Source: Bacillota bacterium
GTDB lineage: Bacteria; Armatimonadota; HRBIN16
DNA: 32,212 nt
Direction: 5' to 3'
Assembly (NCBI GenBank): GCA_023511455.1
Contig: JAIMBJ010000034.1
Location: 1 to 32,212, forward strand
Made by a program: the position numbers and the translations under genes. Under the pieces are notes generated by a model. It ran no database searches and was not told where the DNA came from. It was given only the letters and a program-made list of their open reading frames with translations. Positions 5,013 through 20,061 of the stretch are shown here, piece after piece. Numbering within the stretch: position 1 is the stretch's first letter; every line of letters starts with the position of its first letter.

Positions 5013-6113
5013 ATGAAACAAACGGCATCCATCGTTATCGGATTATGCATCTGCGCCGTACTGGCACTGGCAACGCCGGAGGTGCGATTGAAAGACATCG
5101 CGCAAGTGTATGGCGCGCGCGGCAACCAGCTCATTGGCTACGGGCTGGTGGTCGGACTGGAGGGCACAGGAGACAGCAAAGGCACGCTGTTCACTACTCA
5201 ATCGGTGGCAAACATGCTGCAGCGATTTGGCATCGGTGTACCTGCCGGGCAGATGAAGGTCAAGAACATCGCTGCAGTCGTGGTCACCGCCGACCTTCCG
5301 CCATTTGCGAAAGAAGGTAGCCGAATCGATGTGACCGTCTCCTCTATCGGCGACGCTCGCTCTTTGCAGGGGGGCACCTTGCTGCAAACTCCGCTGATGG
5401 GTGCGGATGGCAACGTGTACGCGGTGGCGCAGGGACCGATTTCAGTCGGCGGTTTTGGGGCGTCATCAGGTGGTTCTTCCCAGCAGAAGAACCACCTGAC
5501 CGTCGGGCGCATACCGGCGGGAGCCATTGTGGAGCGCGAGGTGCCCGCCAGCGTGGTCAAGGACAACAGCGTGCTGATCACCCTGAATACGCCCGACTTC
5601 ACCACGGCCGCTCGCGTGGCATCTGCCATTCGGCAGAAGTTTCCGCAGACCCTGCCCCGTGCGCTGGATGCCGCTACAATCCGGGTAGACATGACCGGTG
5701 AAGACCGCGAAGACGTGGTGACGCTGATTGCCGCCCTGCAGGAAATAACCGTCCAGCCGGATGTTCCTGCCCGCGTGGTGATTAACGAACGCACGGGCAC
5801 GGTGGTGCTGGGAGGGAACGTCACGCTCAGCGCGGCGGCGGTGGCGCACGGCAACCTGACGGTGCGCATTGAAGCCAAGTCGCAGGTGTCTCAGCCCAAT
5901 CCTCTGTCTGGAGGCACCACGGCAGTTACCACCCGCCGAGACGTGAAAGTAACGGAACAAGCCGAACGGCTGGTTGCCCTGCCCGAAGCGGTCACAGTGG
6001 AGCAGCTGGTGAAGGCGCTCAACACGCTGGGAGTGAGTCCGCGCGACCTGATGTCCATTTTGCAAGCGTTGCGAGCAGCGGGCGCGCTCCACGCCGAGGT
6101 GGAGGTGCAATGA
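5013..6113 (+). CDS. flgI: Flagellar P-ring protein FlgI
   Basis: The 366 residues match the FlgI family length. A signal peptide (residues 1-20, ending in ALA) precedes the conserved opening VRLKDIAQVYGARGNQLIGY and GLVVGLEGTGDS. Later motifs include NIAAVVVTADLPPFAKEGSR, IDVTVSSIGDARSLQGGTLL, PDVPARVVINERTGTVVLGG and the C-terminal LVKALNTLGVSPRDLMSIL. FlgI assembles the P ring in the periplasm with FlgA help. Its presence with FlgH implies an outer membrane. The stop overlaps the flgJ start (ATGA). Confidence 0.97.
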   Translation: MKQTASIVIGLCICAVLALATPEVRLKDIAQVYGARGNQLIGYGLVVGLEGTGDSKGTLFTTQSVANMLQRFGIGVPAGQMKVKNIAAVVVTADLPPFAKEGSRIDVTVSSIGDARSLQGGTLLQTPLMGADGNVYAVAQGPISVGGFGASSGGSSQQKNHLTVGRIPAGAIVEREVPASVVKDNSVLITLNTPDFTTAARVASAIRQKFPQTLPRALDAATIRVDMTGEDREDVVTLIAALQEITVQPDVPARVVINERTGTVVLGGNVTLSAAAVAHGNLTVRIEAKSQVSQPNPLSGGTTAVTTRRDVKVTEQAERLVALPEAVTVEQLVKALNTLGVSPRDLMSILQALRAAGALHAEVEVQ

Positions 6114-6409
6114 TGCGCGTGGAGCCCCGCGAAACAATAGACATTCAGCGGTGGAAACTACGTGATGCCGCGCGGCAACTCGAAGCACAGTTTCTGCACC
6201 AGCTGCTGCGCGCCATGCGCCGCACTATAGTCCGCACGCAGTCGAGCTACGCAGTCCAGATGTACACCGACATGACGGACGAAGCGCTGGCAAGGCAGCT
6301 GGCGCAGAGCGACCAGTTTGGTCTGGGCAAGCTGGTCTATGAGAAACTCAGTCCGTATGTGCAAACGCTTGAGACAGTGTTAGGAGGGAACGAGAATGAA
6401 CAGACATGA
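6110..6409 (+). CDS. flgJ: FlgJ-type rod-binding protein (N-terminal domain only)
   Basis: The 99-residue protein corresponds to the rod-binding domain at the N-terminus of FlgJ: LRDAARQLEAQFLHQLLRAM, then YTDMTDEALARQLAQSDQFG. In enteric bacteria FlgJ carries a second, muramidase domain that opens the peptidoglycan for the rod. That half is absent here, as in many non-proteobacterial flagellates, so another hydrolase must do this job. It starts within the flgI stop (ATGA) and overlaps flgN by 14 nt, indicating translational coupling. Confidence 0.88.
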   Translation: MMRVEPRETIDIQRWKLRDAARQLEAQFLHQLLRAMRRTIVRTQSSYAVQMYTDMTDEALARQLAQSDQFGLGKLVYEKLSPYVQTLETVLGGNENEQT

Positions 6410-6896
6410 AGACGTCATCTGGCGTGACCTGATTTCCAACCTGCGCGAACAGCGCAGACATATCCACGCGCTGATCGGCCTGGCGCGCGAGCAAACACAT
6501 GCCCTGGCAGAGGCGAATGTGGAAAGGCTGGCGGAGATTACTCAGGAACAGGCAGCACATCTGGATGAGATAGACACACTGGAGCGCCAGCGCGAGGAGA
6601 TCGCTCGTCGCATCGGTGAGGCACTGGGGCTGCACGCCCAGCCTCCTACGCTCTCGGACTGCGCGTGCCTTGCGCCGGATAACGCAGCGCGCACGTTGAA
6701 ATGGCTGCAGAGAGAGCTGCTTCAGGACATCCGCCAGCTGCAAACGTTAAACGAACGCAACCGCACCCTGGTGCATCATGCAGCGGAAACGGTGAATACC
6801 TGGCTGGCGCTCGTGGTGAACGCCGCCTGTAATCAGGCGAGCTATCACCCACAGTCCAGCACAGGGGTGGCGGTCATCCTGAACACGGAGGTTTAA
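6396..6896 (+). CDS. flgN: FlgN-like export chaperone for FlgK and FlgL
   Basis: This 166-residue protein is predicted to be mostly alpha-helical and rich in charged residues and Gln, as expected of the FlgN family. That family binds the C-termini of the hook-filament junction proteins FlgK and FlgL and delivers them to the export gate. Heptad-like stretches occur at residues 10-75 (LREQRRHIHALIGLAREQTH onwards) and in LQRELLQDIRQLQTLNERNR. The sequence is divergent, so the call leans on its place directly before flgK and flgL. AGGAGGG lies 8 nt before the ATG. Confidence 0.78.
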   Translation: MNRHEDVIWRDLISNLREQRRHIHALIGLAREQTHALAEANVERLAEITQEQAAHLDEIDTLERQREEIARRIGEALGLHAQPPTLSDCACLAPDNAARTLKWLQRELLQDIRQLQTLNERNRTLVHHAAETVNTWLALVVNAACNQASYHPQSSTGVAVILNTEV

Positions 6897-6900
6897 CCCT

Positions 6901-8274
6901 ATGCCCTGGACGTTCTTCGGGATCGAACTGGCGTCGCGCGCCCTGCAATCGATGCAGATGGCGATGAATACGACGGGCCATAACCTGGCGAACATCAACA
7001 CGCCCGGCTATTCGCGTCAGAGGGTGAACCTTGCTACAACCGAACCTCTGGTTCTTGAGGGTGTCAGGACGCTGTTCATGGGCAGCGGCGTGCGTGTGGA
7101 AAGCATCCAGCGTATTCGGGATGTGTTCCTTGACGGGCGACTTGCTAATACCAGCAGTCAGTACCACCGACTCAACACGCTTTATCAGCGATTGACGCAG
7201 GTGGAGGATGTCTTCAGCGAACCCACCGACGCCGGTTTGTCCCGCCAGATTATCGGCTTCTTCAACGCCTTTCAGGAGCTGTCTGCCAACCCTGAGAACG
7301 TCGGAGTACGCGCCAGCGTGTACCAACAGGTGGAGGGTATGACACGCACCTTTCGCCAGCTGGCAGGACGACTGGATGAAATCTTTGTGGAGATGGAACA
7401 GCGGGTACAGGCGACAGCCAGTGAAATCAACTTTATCGCCCAGAGCATCGCCGACCTTAATGTGAAAATACGCTACAACAAAGCACTGGGCACAACGCCC
7501 AATGACCTGCTGGATAAACGAACCAGCCTTATAGAAAAACTTTCGGAATACGTCGAGGTTCGTACGACGGAGTTTTCAGACGGCACGGTGAGGCTATCTC
7601 TGGGAGAGTTCGTCCTGGTGGAGGCGGAGCGTGCGAATCCCCTACCCAGTGACGCGGACTATGTGAACAAAATATTCACCGATGGCGCAGATGTACGGGC
7701 ATACATCGCTGGTGGAAGCGTGGGCGGGCTCATGGACGCGATGGAATACATCCGCACTTACCGGGACCGGCTGGACAGACTGGCGCGCGAAATGGTCGAC
7801 GCCGTCAACATTGTCCATCAGTCAGGTTACGGGCTCGATGGCAACACCGGTTACCGTCTGCTGGAAGGTAGGGATGCACTGAGCATCCGGGTGAGTGACG
7901 ACGTTCTCGATATCAACCACATTGCAGCGGGAGTGACACCTGCACCGGGTGACGGCAATAAGGCACTGGAGCTAGCGAGGTTGCGCCAGCAGCCTATTGC
8001 GAATCTGGACAATAAAACCATACCCGACTTCTATAGCGCACTGGTGGCGGAACTGGGAGAACATACCCGTGCAGCGTCTACCGGTCAGGAAAACCAGAAG
8101 ATTATTCTGCAGAGCCTGCAAGCCGAGCGAGAGGCGGTTTCCGGCGTAAACATGGACGAGGAAATGTCCAACCTGCTGCGCTACCAGCGCAGCTATCAGG
8201 CGGCAGCTCAACTGATAAGCATCATGGATGCCGCCATTGCCGATATGCTGGCGGCATTTGCTGGACGCCGATAA
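6901..8274 (+). CDS. flgK: Flagellar hook-associated protein 1 (FlgK)
   Basis: FlgK is the first junction protein between hook and filament. The N-terminus has FGIELASRALQSMQMAMNTT and GHNLANINTPGYSRQRVNL, diagnostic of FlgK. The family C-terminal region is GVNMDEEMSNLLRYQRSYQA, then AAQLISIMDAAIADML. At 457 residues it is shorter than the enterobacterial protein (about 547), consistent with a reduced outer domain. It has no signal peptide and is exported by the flagellar apparatus with FlgN help. The gap to flgN is 4 nt. Confidence 0.96.
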   Translation: MPWTFFGIELASRALQSMQMAMNTTGHNLANINTPGYSRQRVNLATTEPLVLEGVRTLFMGSGVRVESIQRIRDVFLDGRLANTSSQYHRLNTLYQRLTQVEDVFSEPTDAGLSRQIIGFFNAFQELSANPENVGVRASVYQQVEGMTRTFRQLAGRLDEIFVEMEQRVQATASEINFIAQSIADLNVKIRYNKALGTTPNDLLDKRTSLIEKLSEYVEVRTTEFSDGTVRLSLGEFVLVEAERANPLPSDADYVNKIFTDGADVRAYIAGGSVGGLMDAMEYIRTYRDRLDRLAREMVDAVNIVHQSGYGLDGNTGYRLLEGRDALSIRVSDDVLDINHIAAGVTPAPGDGNKALELARLRQQPIANLDNKTIPDFYSALVAELGEHTRAASTGQENQKIILQSLQAEREAVSGVNMDEEMSNLLRYQRSYQAAAQLISIMDAAIADMLAAFAGRR

Positions 8275-12299: not shown

Positions 12300-12731
12300 C
12301 TACCAGGGGGTAGCAGGTGGCGGAGCGGCGGCGCGCACACTGACCGCAGCAGCACTGCCGGAGTTACCAGCTTTATCTCGCGCCGAGACCACGAACTGCA
12401 CGTTGCCCGGCTGGCTCCCTCCCCACGATGGGGTGAACTGCACTGCGTAGGTCGCGCCGCTGCCAGCTGAAAGCGTCTGGGTCGCCTCGCTTCCGTCCGG
12501 ATAGATAGCCTTCATGGTAACGGCATCCACGCCGGAGCTGTCGTCTGTGACGTCTGCTTCCACGCGCACGCTCGTCACGCCGGGCACAATCAGTGTGGAT
12601 GGCTCTACCACCACCCGGCTGATGGTCGGCGCGGTGGTGTCGGGAGTTACGGGAACACCCCCACCACCGCCGCAGGCAGTCAACACCCATGCCGAGGCCA
12701 CTATCAGAACGATGAACCGTATCGTCTTCAT
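12300..12731 (-). CDS. Small Ig-like lipoprotein
   Basis: The 143-residue protein has a lipoprotein signal peptide with lipobox LTAC (Cys20) followed by a Gly run. Residues about 30-130 (TAPTISRVVVEPSTLIVPGV, later QFVVSARDKAGNSGSAAAVS) look like one Ig/cadherin-like beta domain, ending in a short Pro/Ala tail. It should be anchored to a membrane facing the periplasm or outside. It lies 10 nt downstream of the giant multidomain protein and is probably co-transcribed with it. No enzymatic role is visible. Confidence 0.8.
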   Translation of the reverse strand: MKTIRFIVLIVASAWVLTACGGGGGVPVTPDTTAPTISRVVVEPSTLIVPGVTSVRVEADVTDDSSGVDAVTMKAIYPDGSEATQTLSAGSGATYAVQFTPSWGGSQPGNVQFVVSARDKAGNSGSAAAVSVRAAAPPPATPW

Positions 12732-12741
12732 CGCTGTCCTC

Positions 12742-15700
12742 CTATCGCGTCAACACCACCGGGATGTTCACCCGTGTCTGGCGTCCGTCTTCGTCTGTGG
12801 CGCGCAGTTGTAGCAGGTACGCCCCTGCGGGCAGGGCGATACCGCTATCGTCCGTACCGCGCCATGTCAGCGACTGCGTGCCTTCCACCGCGCGACCGCC
12901 AAACGGGTTCAACTGCGCGACCGGTTTGCCGCTGGCGTTCAACACTTCCGCCGTCACCGCAGCTGGTGCAGTCAGGTGGAAGGTGATATGGAACACGCCG
13001 CCGCGCGTTCGGGTAGCGGTAACGCCCGTGATTTTCAGCCCGACCCCGCTTTCAGGCTCGGCAATCACCTGGAACTGTCGCGTGGTCTCGCCCGGCGCAG
13101 GCACAAACCGATACGACGCGGTCGTGCGCAGATAGTGCCTCTTGCCGGTCTTTTGGTCCACCAGCCACAGCGCGGTGCCGCGTGGCACGCTCGCGATATT
13201 GCCGAACGTGAGCGTCAGCGGGCTGTCTGCGTCTGGAGCAGGCGTCCACTCGGCGGAGAGGCTCCACGTTTGCTTGCCCGAACCGCTGCGCACATCCACG
13301 GCATACGGCTGTCCGGAGCGAAGCAGCGACAGTTTGAGTGAACCGGCGCTGCTCAATGGCGGTGCTGGCGGCAGCCCCACTGACAAGCCCCGTCCGCTTG
13401 TGGAGACGCCTACCGTCACCTCGGCGGTCTCGCCGGCGCATTGCAGGCGCACCGGGAAGCTCCAACCGCTGCGACCGTTTTCTGCGCGACGTCCTGTGGC
13501 AGCGCGTCCATCAGCTGGCGCGGGCAGAATGAGGTTACACGCCTGATGCGCGTACACCCAGCACCCTTGCCATGCCCCCAACTGGGAGAGGACACCGGGC
13601 ACGATGCTGTTGTCATAGACCAGCACGTACTTGCTGCCGTCCCAGGTCCACGCGTAATCTTCCAACCACCCAGCGACTTGTGCCTCCGCCAGGCTCTTGG
13701 TCTGGCCGCCCAGACTGACCTGCAACGCGCTGAGGTTCCATGACAGGCTCTCCAGCCACGGGTTGCCGATGAGGTTCCAGCCCTGTTGCAACGGTATCGT
13801 GAAGGGCTGCGACTCGTCGGGTACATCGCCGCGAATGGTCGGACGCTGAGCAGTGGGCAGTTGCACCCAGTAGCCCCTGCCGACCTGCAGGGCGACACTG
13901 GGATAGCGCACGTAGCCGGAAGCAGGTTCGTACACCGCGAGTTTGTCTGCTTCAAAGCCCAGCACCCGTTGCGCGTTCGGCTCTTCGCTCACTACGGGTA
14001 GGGCGATCAAACGCAGACCAGCAGGCAGCTCTGGCGCAACGCCCGCCGTCGTGGTCGCCTGCGGCTCGGCTGGCATCGCCATACGGTTGCCCACCTTATC
14101 CTCGCCCACGGCGTAGAAACGATAGGTGTAGCCAAACTTGCCCTTGAAGGATGCGCTTCCCGTCTGCTGGCGGCCATCGTCCGGTGTAAACGCCTGCCAC
14201 AGCTGGAGTGCACCACCGTTGGCGGAGTACCACACCTCCGCTTGGGTGACGCCAGAGGCGTCATCCGTGCCCTCCCAGCCGACCGAGAAGGTGGGCTTGT
14301 TTTGCACTCCGGGCATCTCAGCCATACGCACCTGGGGCGCCTGCTTGTCCAGCGTCAGCACGTGCTCGTTGGTCTTCATCGCCGGGTTCGAACCCAGGTG
14401 CGGGTCGAAGGTGATGGTCGCTTTGTTCACGATGCGCGTGCCGGACGCAACCTCTGCCTTCGGGCGGATGCGGAAGGAGACATAGCCTTCACCCTCTGGC
14501 TCGTTGTTGTTCGGAGGCAGGAAGCCATTCTCGTGATGCTCTCCCGAGCGGGTATCGATGCCCTTGAAGACCACCCGCAGTTTGCGCGTGGACGGGTCGT
14601 AACTGCTCTCCACCCGCACCACGAGGTTGTTGCCGAGGTCAACACCCTGCGACAGTCGGCTCGCAGGCGCAGGCAGCGTGACGTGCCGGTTGCCGAAGCC
14701 GAACGCGGTGAACTCCAGCGTGCTGTCGTCGAGGCTTTCATCCAGCACGTCCTCGATGAGCACCTCCTCTGCGCTCGCAGTCGCGGTGGGTAGATTTTCG
14801 AAGTAGACGGTGTAGTCTATCGTTTGGCCGTCGGCAATGAAGCCGTCGACGCCTGGTGAGCCGCTCTTCGCGTTGGGGTCCCACGCGCGGGTCACCCGCA
14901 GGTTTTTGCATTCCCTGCGCTGGCGCAGCCTGTCTGCAAGACGGCGAAGCTCCTTTCCTTTTTCAATACAATCCTGACCCTCCGCGAGGAAGGCTTTGAC
15001 CGCGGTAGTGGCAGGGAGTAATGCCCAATCCAGGTCTGGCGCGAGCTGACTGGCAATCTCGCCCAGCAGAATCTCCATCGGGTGGTCTCCCTTTGCCACC
15101 TGATAGGCTTTCTCCGCCGCCTTCTGGAACTTTTCGCCGTATTTGGCTTTCACGAAGTCCTTCAATGCCTGTTCGGTGGCGCCTGCCGCCAGTTGCGACA
15201 GCCACTCTGCGGCGAAGCTGCCTGCCTGACGGTAGGCGTTGTACAGACGGTTGCTCTGCTCATCCGTCAGGTCGACCCCTTCCAGTGCGAAGTCCTCACG
15301 CAATCGTCGTTTAATCATCCGCTCGCAGCTGGCCTGAAGGAGACGGTGTCCTGCCCATGCCTTGATAATGGTGGCGCCGCTCAAGACGAGCACAACCGCC
15401 GTCGTCATCGGCTCCAGGCGGGTGCGAATGTGCGCCCGGCTGTCGGTAATCTGAATGACCAGCGAGTAGGTGGCGCTCGCGCCCGGAGCCAGCTGCGGTA
15501 GCAACAGCGGAATATCCGACAAACCGGCTGGTTTTGTGCCGCGTGCTACCTCGTTGCCCTGAGAGTTGTACACCCAGTACCTGATGGAAGGGTTCTCACC
15601 CGCCGGCACGTTCTGCAACGATAGCTGCACCTTCACAAACGGCGTCTCCCATACCGTGTTCGGGTTGGTCACGTGAATCTGGAAGGTCTCCCGCCGTCCC

Positions 15701-18267
15701 CAGCGGATGAACGGCTTGTTAAACTGCAGGTCAGCTTCCATCCCGAACGTGCGAATCGTGGGCGCCTGCCACTCCTGCGTGCCGATACTCGGATGGCTGA
15801 TGCGTAACGTAGGCGCAACGTCTTGCAGCACTTTCTCCAGCAACGCAAAGCGCGCGCGCACCTGCGTGCCGTCTTCCGAGACCGTGACCTCATCTGCAGC
15901 CACCTCGGTGCTGGTCGCCGTGCCCACCGGGAACAGCAGCCACACCTGAGGCGTGCCCTGTTCGCGGTTGATGGACAGCCCGCCCACTGTCACGTCCACG
16001 TAGTTGAACATGGTGTACACGTTATGGAAGCGTACACCCGGTGCGCCAACCCAGACCGCCACCTCCGTTTGCGCCCCATCCGGCAGGTCGCTGGACTCCA
16101 GAGACGCACGCACGGTAAGGTTGCCGCCCGGAGCCGCGTCCTGTGCGACCTTCACACGGAAGCTGGCGGAGCTGCTTGCTCCCGCACCCAGGCTTCCAAT
16201 GCTCCATTGCGCCGTCCGGGCGCTGGTGTCATACGTGCCACCCTCCGAGAGAGAACCTTCCACCACATCCATTTTCTCAGGCAGAACGCATTTCAGCACC
16301 ACGTCGGAGGCAGGCACGTCCCCTTCATTCGCATAACGCACCTCTACCGCGACCTCATCTCCCGCGCTTACCATGCCGGGCGTTGCCGAAGCGGTGAGGC
16401 TCGAGCGCGCGCCCGAAAGACTTAGCACGTATTGCCTCACCTGCGTTTGGGGCAGCTGACCGTGGTCCATTACGCGGATGTAGTAGCGTCCCTCGCGCGG
16501 GTTGCTGATGGTGAGGCGGACGGGCGGATTGAACCGTTGCGTTGCGCTCCATCGCTCCCAACTACCGATAGACCCGCGCCATACGTCGAGGTTGGTCACA
16601 TTGCCGGGAGCCTCCACTGTCAACTGCAGCGCGCGTACCCCTGCCGGCACATCCAGTTGCAGCCAGTCGTAGCCGTCGTTGTGGTAGACGGTACCAGTAT
16701 AACTCTGCCCCAGTCTCACTGTTAGCAGATTGGTGCCTGCATACACCACAATCTGTCCCGCTGCGGCTGGCGTAATCTCCACCTCGTAGTCGCCAGCAGC
16801 GGGGTTGTTACGTTCAATCAGGATATCTGCCCCCACGCTTTCAGCGATTTTGGTGCCGCCGAAGAACAGACGCATCGTATGGTTCTGAACCGTCTCCACC
16901 GAACGCGCTGTCAGGAACAGTTTGGTCGCGCCCTCGGGAACTGTTACCGTCCCGCGCCAGGTGCCACCTGCCATAGTGAGCGTTCGGAGCTGTCCTAACG
17001 GGAGTGTCGGTTTGACCAGCGTGAAAGTGCGCTCTGAGCTCCAGTTGCTCCACACCCAGCCGTCGGTGACCTGCACCCGCCAGCGGTAAACGCCGGTCGC
17101 CAGAGTGGGATCCAGATTGAGGCTCACCACCTCATCGCTGGAGGCGGAGGGCTTATCAAACGCCGAAGCGTCAACCGTCTGGTCGTAGCGCTTGACCACC
17201 GTTCCGTCTTCAGTCATCAGCTCCACCCGGAAACGCAGCTGGTCGGCGGAGTCGGGGTCTGTTGCCTTGAAGGATAACACCCAGTCGCTAACCGTTGCGC
17301 CGGGATCAGGATAGAGCAGCTGCACGCTCGGCGGGGTGTTGGTCGCCCAGGTCATGGGCACACGCCACACCGCCACACCGCCCCAGCCCCCGGCGGCAAT
17401 GATAAGGTCATTGCCCTGTCGGGCGATCGACACATCGTATACCGGCTCGTTGTGCCCGCTGAGCGCACGCTCCAGCATGCCGTCCTGTAGCCGCCACACC
17501 TTCACAGCGGCGTCTTCTCCAACCGTGACGAACACATTGCCCGACGGGTCGAACCGAACGCGATTGATGCCTCTCTCATTGCCGACCCATGTGTGCGCTT
17601 GCTTGCTCAAGATGTTGGTGAACTCGAGGGTGTCTCCCAAATCACGGATGGCTTTGATATACCACCACGTGTTGTCCGCCACCACCATGATGTTGCCCCT
17701 GGGGTGAACGGCCACAGTTTGCATATTCCAGCCACCGAGTTCCTGATTCAGTTCGCCCGTGTCCACGTGCCATACGCGGAAGGCGGTGTCATAGTTCCAA
17801 CCGGCTGCCCGCGCAGCGGCAAGCAGGTATTTTCCATCCGGGGTGAACACCATATCGTCGACGCTAAAGTCTCCGCTGGCACTGCCAAGAGCGTGAACGA
17901 CGGAGCCGTCGCTACTGTCAAATAACGCGTGGTATTGCCTCAACCATCCATCCACACGCAGGACAGCAAGAAGTCCACCGTTCGGGGAGAAAGCGGCTGT
18001 CCACAGTATTGTGGTTCGCCAGAGTTCCGTGCCATCCGGGAATGAGCGCATGACCCCGTTCCCAGACTCACTGACGAACATCTTACTACCGTCAGGAGAA
18101 ATCCATACGGCACCTGTGCCGCTGGGCAAACTCAATTGTTCCCTACCATCCGCAACCCGCATGACGCGTGTCGGTCCGGAATAGTTGGAGTATGCGACGA
18201 AGTTGCCGTCTGGAGACATGGCTACTGAGTTCACTTCGCGTGTCGTCGGTGGCAGTATCACGCGCAC
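12742..18267 (-). CDS. Large multidomain surface protein, downstream part after an in-frame TAG (1841 aa)
   Basis: This is the 3' part of a giant exported protein. Apparent domains in order: WD40-type blades (about 1-310, with SPDGNFVAYSN, FTPDGKYLLAAA, FDPSGNVFVTVG); a fibronectin III-like domain (about 315-415); two pre-peptidase C-terminal type beta domains (about 425-620); a DUF11-like repeat (about 625-745); a helical, charged region (about 990-1115); a domain opening with TRAWDPNAKSG (from about 1125); an Ig-like domain (about 1315-1420); and a C-terminal FlgD-like Ig module ending in AGAYLLQLRATDEDGRQT. There is no signal peptide. The GTG at 18267 is in the same frame as the upstream gene, separated only by a TAG and 12 codons. 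Reinitiation at this GTG (GGGAG 5 nt upstream) is possible but would yield a cytoplasmic fragment. Confidence 0.75.
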   Translation of the reverse strand: MRVILPPTTREVNSVAMSPDGNFVAYSNYSGPTRVMRVADGREQLSLPSGTGAVWISPDGSKMFVSESGNGVMRSFPDGTELWRTTILWTAAFSPNGGLLAVLRVDGWLRQYHALFDSSDGSVVHALGSASGDFSVDDMVFTPDGKYLLAAARAAGWNYDTAFRVWHVDTGELNQELGGWNMQTVAVHPRGNIMVVADNTWWYIKAIRDLGDTLEFTNILSKQAHTWVGNERGINRVRFDPSGNVFVTVGEDAAVKVWRLQDGMLERALSGHNEPVYDVSIARQGNDLIIAAGGWGGVAVWRVPMTWATNTPPSVQLLYPDPGATVSDWVLSFKATDPDSADQLRFRVELMTEDGTVVKRYDQTVDASAFDKPSASSDEVVSLNLDPTLATGVYRWRVQVTDGWVWSNWSSERTFTLVKPTLPLGQLRTLTMAGGTWRGTVTVPEGATKLFLTARSVETVQNHTMRLFFGGTKIAESVGADILIERNNPAAGDYEVEITPAAAGQIVVYAGTNLLTVRLGQSYTGTVYHNDGYDWLQLDVPAGVRALQLTVEAPGNVTNLDVWRGSIGSWERWSATQRFNPPVRLTISNPREGRYYIRVMDHGQLPQTQVRQYVLSLSGARSSLTASATPGMVSAGDEVAVEVRYANEGDVPASDVVLKCVLPEKMDVVEGSLSEGGTYDTSARTAQWSIGSLGAGASSSASFRVKVAQDAAPGGNLTVRASLESSDLPDGAQTEVAVWVGAPGVRFHNVYTMFNYVDVTVGGLSINREQGTPQVWLLFPVGTATSTEVAADEVTVSEDGTQVRARFALLEKVLQDVAPTLRISHPSIGTQEWQAPTIRTFGMEADLQFNKPFIRWGRRETFQIHVTNPNTVWETPFVKVQLSLQNVPAGENPSIRYWVYNSQGNEVARGTKPAGLSDIPLLLPQLAPGASATYSLVIQITDSRAHIRTRLEPMTTAVVLVLSGATIIKAWAGHRLLQASCERMIKRRLREDFALEGVDLTDEQSNRLYNAYRQAGSFAAEWLSQLAAGATEQALKDFVKAKYGEKFQKAAEKAYQVAKGDHPMEILLGEIASQLAPDLDWALLPATTAVKAFLAEGQDCIEKGKELRRLADRLRQRRECKNLRVTRAWDPNAKSGSPGVDGFIADGQTIDYTVYFENLPTATASAEEVLIEDVLDESLDDSTLEFTAFGFGNRHVTLPAPASRLSQGVDLGNNLVVRVESSYDPSTRKLRVVFKGIDTRSGEHHENGFLPPNNNEPEGEGYVSFRIRPKAEVASGTRIVNKATITFDPHLGSNPAMKTNEHVLTLDKQAPQVRMAEMPGVQNKPTFSVGWEGTDDASGVTQAEVWYSANGGALQLWQAFTPDDGRQQTGSASFKGKFGYTYRFYAVGEDKVGNRMAMPAEPQATTTAGVAPELPAGLRLIALPVVSEEPNAQRVLGFEADKLAVYEPASGYVRYPSVALQVGRGYWVQLPTAQRPTIRGDVPDESQPFTIPLQQGWNLIGNPWLESLSWNLSALQVSLGGQTKSLAEAQVAGWLEDYAWTWDGSKYVLVYDNSIVPGVLSQLGAWQGCWVYAHQACNLILPAPADGRAATGRRAENGRSGWSFPVRLQCAGETAEVTVGVSTSGRGLSVGLPPAPPLSSAGSLKLSLLRSGQPYAVDVRSGSGKQTWSLSAEWTPAPDADSPLTLTFGNIASVPRGTALWLVDQKTGKRHYLRTTASYRFVPAPGETTRQFQVIAEPESGVGLKITGVTATRTRGGVFHITFHLTAPAAVTAEVLNASGKPVAQLNPFGGRAVEGTQSLTWRGTDDSGIALPAGAYLLQLRATDEDGRQTRVNIPVVLTR

Positions 18268-18303
18268 CTTCGCTCCCGACTCCAGCGAATACTGCTCGAT
18301 ACC

Positions 18304-18306
18304 CTA
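18304..18306 (-). other. In-frame TAG interrupting the giant WD40 protein gene
   Basis: The codons run ...CCG GGT AAT CTG TAG GGT ATC GAG CAG TAT... on the minus strand. The frame stays open on both sides and both sides code for beta-propeller blades. A single C-to-T change from CAG (Gln) would produce it. Read-through, recent inactivation or a base-call error are all open. Confidence 0.9.
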
Positions 18307-19290
18307 CAGATTACCCGGCTGGTCATAGATTCCTACATACAGGTCGGTGCTACCGCGCACAGCGAGACCGTACAAGAACGGCGCGACCGTGATGCTTAAC
18401 GCAATTGACCGCTGTTCCGCGCCGTCTGCGGCAGCGAACACTTTGACCGTGCCGGCGTTCCAGCGGGTGATAAGCAGCTGACTGTCCGCAGAAAAGTCTA
18501 CAGGCACTAATGAGTCGAAACTGCCCCTATCCAGCGTATAGAGCGGGGTATCCCAGTTCGAGGTGCTCCACACCCGAACGGTGCTGCCTGCGGAAAGCGC
18601 CAGGTAGCGTCCGTCCGGCGAGTATGTCAGGCTGACATTCTCGGGCAGACCCTCGGCGAGGGTGCGCGCCTCGCTCCAGTCGGACACGCGCCACAGCTTG
18701 GCGGCGGTGCCGCCGTTGGCGGAGGCGAGGTACTGACCGTCGGGCGAGAACTTCAGCGAGTAGACGTACCTTCCCGGCTGCGGCAGGTCGGTCACCTTCT
18801 CTCCGGTCGTCAAGTCGTAGACCTGCAGGTAATTCCAGCCCCCTGTTGCCAGCCAGCGTCCGTCTGGCGAGAGAGCGACCGCGCGCAGCCAGTGCGGAAG
18901 GCCCGCTCGTATCTCCCGGTACCGGCTCCAGTTCGACGTCCGCCAGACGATAGCCGTTAGCCGCGATGAGGCTTCGCTCGCGCCCAGAAGATACTGCCCG
19001 TCCGGAGTAAACGCCACATCACGCCAGCCGCCTGTCAACCCAGTCAGCACCTTCACCACTGAGCCGTCGTTGGTGTTGAACACCAACACGGAACCCATCG
19101 CTCCGGGTACCGCCATGAGGCTGCCATCTGGGGAAACAGACGGTTTCACGTGGTCAGGTGCCAGTCGGGGAAAGAGGAGTACGGGGTCGTTTGGGGAAGC
19201 ACGGAGAGGAAGATGAAACGCGCCAGTGAAAACAAGACCCACAAACAGAAGGAGACCGAGCCTCCTGCGCGGAATAGAAGATTTTGCCAT
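18304..19290 (-). CDS. Large WD40 surface protein, upstream part with signal peptide (328 aa)
   Basis: The start ATG at 19290 follows GGAGGG at 4 nt. An upstream in-frame ATG (19392) lacks such a site and would bury the signal peptide. Residues 1-32 (MAKSSIPRRRLGLLLFVGLV, then FTGAFHLPLRAS) form a Sec signal peptide. At least six WD40-like blades follow, marked by SPDGSLMAV, FTPDGQYLLGAS, LSPDGRWLATGG, FSPDGQYLASANG and YSPDGRYLALSAG, each with a VWR or LWRVSDW type ending. The frame ends at a TAG inside a blade and coding potential resumes in the same frame. Taken together the gene would span 12742-19290, about 2,182 codons. It may be one read-through protein, a pseudogene, or an exported propeller acting alone. 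Confidence 0.75.
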   Translation of the reverse strand: MAKSSIPRRRLGLLLFVGLVFTGAFHLPLRASPNDPVLLFPRLAPDHVKPSVSPDGSLMAVPGAMGSVLVFNTNDGSVVKVLTGLTGGWRDVAFTPDGQYLLGASEASSRLTAIVWRTSNWSRYREIRAGLPHWLRAVALSPDGRWLATGGWNYLQVYDLTTGEKVTDLPQPGRYVYSLKFSPDGQYLASANGGTAAKLWRVSDWSEARTLAEGLPENVSLTYSPDGRYLALSAGSTVRVWSTSNWDTPLYTLDRGSFDSLVPVDFSADSQLLITRWNAGTVKVFAAADGAEQRSIALSITVAPFLYGLAVRGSTDLYVGIYDQPGNL

Positions 19291-19375
19291 GGAACCCTCC
19301 CTTGTCCGTCTCGGGGTGAACCCTAGAAGTTGCCGCGGCTGTTGTTGGGCGCACGCAGGAGACAGATGTGATTTC

Positions 19376-19410
19376 ATGCCGAGTATCGGCATTTGTGAAC
19401 AATTTCTCTA
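19376..19410 (-). promoter_or_regulatory. Sigma-28-like motif overlapping a palindrome, upstream of the giant protein
   Basis: On the minus strand TAGA (19410-19407), 16 nt, then GCCGATAC (19390-19383) matches the flgF promoter's spacing, with one mismatch in each element. The -10 is part of a 17-bp palindrome, ATGCCGA-gta-TCGGCAT (19376-19392), which could instead be a repressor site. The leader would be about 85 nt. Confidence 0.35.
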
Positions 19411-19434
19411 GGTCAATTTGGTGTTCCCTGCATC

Positions 19435-19463
19435 TTGCAAAGTTTTCGGAAAGATTGTACGAT
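19435..19463 (+). promoter_or_regulatory. Candidate promoter for the Uma2 gene
   Basis: TTGCAA (19435-19440), a 17-bp spacer and TACGAT (19458-19463) form a plausible sigma-70 promoter. It would start transcription near 19470, just ahead of the ATG at 19483. Confidence 0.4.
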
Positions 19464-19482
19464 ATGTTGTGAGGTGAAAGCG

Positions 19483-20061
19483 ATGAGCCAGGTGGCGTTG
19501 CAGGATGTGAAGCGATGGAGCCTTTCGGAGTGGCTACAACTGCCAGAGGGGCCACCTTTTTACGAACTGGAGAATGGGAGATTAATCCAGATGCCTTCGC
19601 CACGACGGGAACACCAGCGGGTGGTGGCTAAACTCTTTAACTATCTGGACAAGTGGTGCACGGTTCGACAATTGGGCACGGTGGTCATGGAGGTGGATGT
19701 TGCCCTCCCGACGGGTCGCGGATACATCCCGGATATTGCGTTCGTGCGTCGCGAGCGAGAGGCGGAACTGCTGGCGGAAGACGGTAAGATACATGGCGCA
19801 CCGGATTTGGTGGTCGAAGTGCTCTCAGAAGGCTCGCGCTCCCGCGATTTGTTCCGAAAGTTCGAGGGTTACCAAGAGGCAGGCGTGCGTTATTACTGGA
19901 TTGTGGATCCCGAAGCGTGGCTCATCGCCGAGTACGCGTTGACCGAGCAGGGCTATGTGTTGCGCAGCGTGACTGAAGAGGGGGAAGTGTTCCGACCGAG
20001 CCTGTTCGAAGGGCTCGAGATTGACCTGAAAGCCATTATGACCACCACGCAGAGACCGTAA
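19483..20061 (+). CDS. Uma2 family PD-(D/E)XK nuclease-like protein
   Basis: The 192-residue protein has the Uma2 (DUF820) fold of the restriction-endonuclease-like superfamily. Signatures are YELENGRLIQMPSP (E30), GYIPDIAFVRR (PD at 83-84), and PDLVVEVLSEGSRSRDLFRK, whose D108, E112 and K126 fit the catalytic set, followed by YYWIVDPE. The start at 19483 is chosen over 19435 because the promoter candidate lies between them and the family usually begins close to this point. The biological role of Uma2 proteins is poorly known; a DNA nuclease activity is a family-level inference. It converges with the amidohydrolase, 4 nt apart. Confidence 0.9.
   Translation: MSQVALQDVKRWSLSEWLQLPEGPPFYELENGRLIQMPSPRREHQRVVAKLFNYLDKWCTVRQLGTVVMEVDVALPTGRGYIPDIAFVRREREAELLAEDGKIHGAPDLVVEVLSEGSRSRDLFRKFEGYQEAGVRYYWIVDPEAWLIAEYALTEQGYVLRSVTEEGEVFRPSLFEGLEIDLKAIMTTTQRP

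What the first reader, a model, noticed from the sequence alone, without database searches (positions are those of the whole stretch)
18260..18320. Single in-frame TAG inside a ~2,180-codon beta-propeller surface protein
The frame upstream of the TAG has a signal peptide and WD40 blades but stops mid-blade. The frame after it, in the same register, completes the blade and runs 1,853 more codons through WD40, PPC, DUF11 and FlgD-Ig type domains without a signal peptide. One substitution (CAG to TAG) explains it. Alternatives are stop read-through giving a short propeller and a long surface form, recent inactivation, or sequencing error. The lack of further stops or frameshifts argues the change is new or tolerated.
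Basis: partly seen in the sequence, partly recalled or inferred. Interest (0 to 1): 0.75.

Follow-up and report, generated by a model that had tools for sequence, protein, structure and literature searches.

The report
Recently broken giant surface-protein gene
A gene for a very large secreted propeller protein in an uncultured Armatimonadota bacterium carries one early stop codon; because related species have the gene intact, wrecked or deleted, this is most likely an ordinary, recently inactivated and dispensable gene, not a new way of reading stop codons.

Summary
The minus-strand gene at 12742-19290 has 2,182 codons, a signal peptide, two WD40 propellers, then PPC, DUF11, DUF7619 and FlgD-Ig-type domains. 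Its only internal stop is one TAG at 18304-18306 (codon 329). The 1,853 codons after it are stop-free (about 57 stops expected in random sequence) and align with same-genus orthologues that have no stop there.

The best reading is recent inactivation of a dispensable gene. Across the genus the orthologue is intact in G003 and open to a contig end in G004. It is wrecked in G001 by two frameshifts and two out-of-frame deletions. It is deleted with a scar in the closest relative, G007, and absent from the same locus in G002 and G005. No relative has a stop at the site. No CTA-anticodon tRNA was found, RF1 is present, and TAG ends 8 of 21 genes in the window. No RNA structure follows the TAG. The absence of further lesions implies less than about 1.4% neutral change since the stop arose.

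"CAG to TAG" is not supported, because the site lies in a variable loop. Assembly error or strain polymorphism remains possible without reads. Read-through is not excluded, but no result favours it.

The parts
12742..19290 (-). Gene for the large secreted WD40/PPC/DUF11/DUF7619/FlgD_ig protein, 2,182 codons, broken by one TAG
   Evidence: orthologous single ORF in G003 (2229 aa from the most upstream start) and G004 (open to contig end)
18304..18306 (-). Single in-frame TAG, codon 329 of the gene
   Evidence: not a stop in G001, G003 or G004
18307..19290 (-). Upstream part: signal peptide and about six and a half blades of the first WD40 propeller (predicted truncated product, 328 aa)
12742..18303 (-). 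Downstream part: rest of blade 7, second propeller, PPC, DUF11, DUF7619, FlgD_ig; no signal peptide
18265..18267 (-). GTG that could in principle allow re-initiation after the TAG (GGGAG about 5 nt upstream); its product would lack a signal peptide
   Evidence: inference only
19291..19420 (-). Leader with GGAGG-like ribosome site and a short upstream sequence (GAGAAA..TTCACAA) similar in G001, G003 and G009; looks intact
   Evidence: by eye
19435..20061 (+). Uma2-family (PF05685) gene between this gene and the amidohydrolase; missing at this place in G001, G003 and G004
12300..12731 (-). 143-aa protein without a Pfam match, adjacent downstream of the propeller gene wherever that end was seen (G001, G003, G009); only its last 32 codons remain in G007

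Best explanation
A recent nonsense mutation has inactivated a dispensable gene for a giant secreted surface protein. Translation ends at codon 329, so only a signal peptide and an incomplete first propeller would be made, which probably misfolds and is degraded. The remaining 1,853 codons are intact only because too little time has passed for further damage. The genus loses this gene (with its 143-aa neighbour) repeatedly. Shown: the TAG, the intact orthologues, and the decay and deletion in relatives. Inferred: that no useful full-length protein is made, and that the mutation is fixed in the species rather than a strain variant.
For: Single-ORF orthologues exist in the same genus without the stop. 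The G001 orthologue is clearly dead: two small frameshifts in the first propeller and two internal deletions of about 90 and 113 codons that also change frame, in a contig of 31x coverage whose neighbouring genes are intact. The closest relative, G007, lacks window 12392-20039, keeping the last 32 codons of the 143-aa gene as a scar. G002 and G005 have amidohydrolase and sigma factor on one contig without the gene between them. The absence of a second stop in 2,182 codons implies at most about 90 neutral substitutions since the loss (about 1.4%, 95% limit). pN/pS below 1 on both sides of the TAG shows past purifying selection, weaker in the propellers than in neighbouring enzymes.
Against: There is only one lesion, and a lone in-frame stop is a weak mark of pseudogenes: PMC7918605 states that in-frame stops without other signs of degradation are poor markers. 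The leader and ribosome site look intact. No reads, transcripts or peptides could be examined, and no second genome of the same species was available.
Confidence: 0.76

Rival explanations
1. Assembly or sequencing artefact, or a minority-strain allele that entered the consensus: the population carries an intact gene.
For: The window is a single contig of a 73-contig genome with no read data. The rest of the gene is undamaged. PMC7918605 names sequencing errors as one of four sources of in-frame stops.
Against: The window's neighbouring genes tested against relatives are full length and undisturbed. Single-base errors in assembled consensus are rare (general knowledge). Loss of this same gene in relatives makes a real mutation more likely here than at a random gene.
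Confidence: 0.14
2. Programmed or tolerated stop read-through, giving a short propeller and a rare long surface form.
For: The frame after the TAG is open and shows past purifying selection. Leader and ribosome site look intact. Read-through of in-frame stops has been proposed to be widespread in bacteria (PMC7918605).
Against: The stop is shared with none of the orthologues, whereas PMC7918605 restricts its cases to stops shared by two or more species. No RNA structure after the TAG: z = +0.95, 165 of 200 shuffles fold at least as well. The short form would end within a blade, not at a domain boundary. Relatives make the long form from an uninterrupted ORF.
Confidence: 0.06
3. Amber suppression or TAG reassignment: a tRNA reads TAG as an amino acid in this organism.
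For: Only that the frame continues.
Against: 43 tRNA matches in the genome: 42 typed genes, none with anticodon CTA, and one weak match whose loop reads CCC. RF1 is present above its cut-off. TAG ends 8 of 21 window genes. Limit: tRNAs for Tyr, Ile(GAT), Thr(GGT) and Ala(TGC) were not found, so the set is incomplete.
Confidence: 0.01
4. The gene has split into two working products: a secreted short propeller, and a second protein started again at the GTG at 18267.
For: A GTG with GGGAG about 5 nt upstream lies 36 nt after the TAG.
Against: The second product would lack a signal peptide and stay in the cytoplasm. Both halves would hold a broken blade. No relative has such a split.
Confidence: 0.03

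Closest known systems
Recent bacterial nonsense pseudogenes, e.g. independent inactivation of one gene in related strains (arginine decarboxylase genes in Chlamydia trachomatis, PMC2720952; title and abstract only)
   Same: One early stop in an otherwise intact gene, and different lesions of the same gene in relatives.
   Different: Here the gene is a very large surface protein in an uncultured thermophile-type lineage, with no transcript, protein or read data.
In-frame stop codons conserved within bacterial genes, proposed as read-through (PMC7918605)
   Same: A single in-frame TAG, and low dN relative to dS in the surrounding sequence.
   Different: The stop here is not shared with any orthologue, and relatives have decayed or deleted the gene.
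Tandem WD40 double propellers (Foldseek hits such as 2ymu, a highly repetitive propeller, and 1nr0, two seven-bladed propellers)
   Same: Two consecutive WD40 propellers of about seven blades each, from the model.
   Different: The matched eukaryotic proteins are intracellular; this one is secreted and carries PPC, DUF11 and FlgD-Ig-type modules. Model confidence is modest (mean pLDDT 67).

Membership tests
Recent nonsense pseudogene | Otherwise intact ORF broken by a disabling change relative to orthologues | tested here: met
   One TAG; G003 and G004 orthologues uninterrupted
Recent nonsense pseudogene | Gene dispensable: lost or decayed in relatives | tested here: met
   Wrecked in G001, scar in G007, absent at the locus in G002 and G005
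Recent nonsense pseudogene | Relaxed selection after the lesion | tested here: inconclusive
   The event is too young and the orthologues too distant (synonymous sites near saturation); pN/pS is historical
Recent nonsense pseudogene | No functional full-length product | not testable with these tools
   Needs peptides or ribosome profiling
Functional stop read-through gene | Stop conserved at the same position in orthologues | tested here: not met
   G001, G003 and G004 have no stop at the site
Functional stop read-through gene | Purifying selection after the stop | tested here: inconclusive
   pN/pS 0.24-0.54 after the TAG in G000-G003, but this reflects the time before the mutation
Functional stop read-through gene | Stimulating RNA structure downstream (present in some known cases) | tested here: not met
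   z = +0.95
Amber suppressor or recoded genome | tRNA with CTA anticodon | tested here: not met
   None among 43 tRNA matches; four common tRNAs missing from the assembly
Amber suppressor or recoded genome | Loss of RF1 or avoidance of TAG as stop | tested here: not met
   RF1 present; TAG ends 8 of 21 window genes

The most novel reading that the evidence does not exclude
The TAG is read through at a low, useful rate, so the cell secretes mostly a truncated propeller and displays a few full-length 2,182-residue surface proteins, in a lineage whose relatives make only the long form.
Probability: 0.05. Interest if true: 0.5.

Novelty: new member of a known kind. Interest (0 to 1): 0.15.

Why it matters
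It matters little by itself: it is another case of a large, dispensable surface protein being lost. What adds some value is that one genus shows several stages of loss of the same gene (intact, single stop, multiple lesions, deletion with scar, absence). It also cautions against reading a lone in-frame stop in a metagenome-assembled genome as recoding. Were read-through real, it would be a natural test of stop-controlled surface display.

Tried and rejected
Searches with the C-terminal module reported matches with '1 TAG' or '1 TAA' in G007, G001 and G002; on inspection these are ordinary terminal stops after '...LILP' or '...LLLP', not internal stops. A weak extra tRNA match (34.5 bits) was checked as a possible suppressor; its anticodon loop reads CCC. 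Repeats near the site that could point to a copying error or phase switch: none spans the TAG. A close intact copy elsewhere in the genome as a backup: none, the best other G000 propeller match is 34% identical, and DNA at the site matches only itself. Uma2 insertion as the cause of silencing: considered, but a promoter-like sequence and ribosome site shared with relatives lie between the insert and the gene. The G003/G004/G001 N-terminal sequence was compared for the ancestral codon and gave no answer.

Full report
OBSERVATION. The minus strand reads TAG at 18306-18304. It separates two ORFs in the same frame, 18304..19392 and 12742..18267; reading through gives one protein with no other internal stop. 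The likely start is the ATG at 19290, which has a GGAGG-like site before it and a signal peptide after it, as in relatives. From there the gene has 2,182 codons, the TAG is codon 329, and 1,853 codons follow. Random sequence of this composition would hold about 57 stops in that stretch, P(none) about 7e-26. Pfam finds WD40 propellers, PPC, DUF11, DUF7619 and FlgD_ig. An AlphaFold2 model of the first 727 residues (mean pLDDT 67) shows about 14 four-strand blades, read by me from the strand list as two propellers of seven. The TAG falls between the second and third strands of the seventh blade, in a low-confidence loop. The best structural matches are WD40 double propellers.

WHERE IT IS. The window is the whole of one contig of a 3.85 Mb, 73-contig genome, 99% complete. 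Same-genus records are an Armatimonadota MAG of class Chthonomonadia (G001 = JABUFA010000012, isolate Ch118) and an uncultured bacterium MAG (G004 = CAKZNX010000133).

RELATIVES. G003 has one uninterrupted 2,229-codon ORF (from its most upstream start) aligned end to end; G004 has an open ORF of at least 2,028 codons that runs off its contig. Neither has a stop at the site. The site is in a loop of variable length and sequence, so the ancestral codon cannot be read from relatives. The neighbourhood sigma factor / 143-aa gene / propeller / amidohydrolase / methylase / GH2 is kept in G001 and G003, and the propeller-to-GH2 part in G004.

DECAY IN THE GENUS. In G001 the orthologue is split by two small frameshifts in the first propeller and by two deletions of about 90 and 113 codons that also shift the frame. 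The contig title gives 31x coverage and the flanking genes are intact. G007 is the closest relative (sigma factor 99.5% over the 211 aligned residues, amidohydrolase 88%). There the sequence jumps from the counterpart of window 20039 to that of 12392, leaving the last 32 codons of the 143-aa gene as a scar; G007 is 77% complete and its contig short, so this rests on one assembly. In G002 and G005 the amidohydrolase and the sigma factor lie on one contig without propeller or 143-aa gene between them. In G009 the two ends of an orthologue lie on two contig edges, the C-terminal end followed by the 143-aa gene. In G006 and G008 the locus is broken by contig ends and no orthologue of this similarity was found. 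The gene is therefore dispensable and repeatedly lost, or gained and lost, in this genus.

AGE OF THE LESION. About 3.3% of random substitutions in this gene make a stop. Finding no second stop bounds neutral change since the event at about 90 substitutions (1.4%) at 95%; the lack of frameshifts points the same way. pN/pS between G000 and G003 is 0.51 before the TAG, 0.53 in the rest of the propellers, and 0.37 and 0.24 further on, against 0.23 for the amidohydrolase and 0.15 for the GH2 neighbour. Synonymous sites are close to saturation, so these figures describe the long past, not the time since the stop.

READ-THROUGH AND RECODING. RF1 is present. Of 43 tRNA matches, 42 were typed, none with anticodon CTA; the weak remaining one has CCC in its loop. 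Four common tRNAs are missing from the assembly, so the set is incomplete. TAG ends 8 of 21 window genes. The 121 nt from 24 nt upstream of the TAG fold no better than shuffles. PMC7918605 argues that some lone in-frame stops in bacteria are read through, and bases this on stops shared by two or more species; that condition is not met here. The same paper warns that a lone stop is a poor mark of a pseudogene, so a small probability is kept for read-through.

NEIGHBOURING CHANGE. A Uma2-family gene (19435-20061, plus strand; PF05685, E 9e-37) lies between the propeller gene and the amidohydrolase. G001, G003 and G004 have about 150-220 bp there. A partial 70% DNA match to this stretch exists on another contig of the genome. 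A GAGAAA..TTCACAA sequence before the gene is similar in G000, G001, G003 and G009 (by eye), so the insert need not have silenced the gene.

VERDICT. The most likely explanation is recent inactivation of a dispensable surface-protein gene (0.76). Artefact or strain variant (0.14) can be settled only with reads. Read-through (0.06), a two-product split (0.03) and suppression (0.01) lack positive evidence.

Noticed in passing
window 19435-20061 (+): Uma2-family gene (PF05685) between the propeller gene and the amidohydrolase, missing there in G001, G003 and G004; a partial 70% DNA match lies on contig C7 of the same genome. G007 may keep about 27 bp resembling its 3' end at the deletion junction.
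   Followed up: partly
window 12300-12731 (-); L131 953-1378; L108 3630-3725: A 143-aa gene without a Pfam match directly follows the propeller gene in G000, G001, G003 and G009 (at another genomic place in G009) and is lost or truncated where the propeller gene is missing (G002, G005, G007), so the two may travel as a pair.
   Followed up: partly
window 17340-19203 (-): Similarity to relatives is mosaic: residues 30-327 of G000 are 60% identical to G004 and 53% to G003, but residues 330-650 only 43% and 46%, which suggests exchange of propeller segments.
   Followed up: no
window 12742-14500 (-): The C-terminal part (about 430 aa, with the '...WIEDYAWGW...' stretch) is shared by many large proteins in every genome of the genus, with related stretches in a groundwater Armatimonadetes MAG and a Planctomycetota MAG, like a common sorting or anchoring module.
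   Followed up: no
L080 69-134 (G000 contig C5): Shortened tRNA-like gene with anticodon-loop CCC that scores 34.5 bits and is not called by ARAGORN; a normal tRNA-Gly(CCC) also exists, so this may be a decayed or specialised tRNA-Gly.
   Followed up: partly
L109 about 5527-7045 (G005): Where other species have the propeller gene, G005 has a minus-strand open frame of about 395 codons with a repeated 'YAEFQEYRKQTDERFREL' coiled-coil motif.
   Followed up: no
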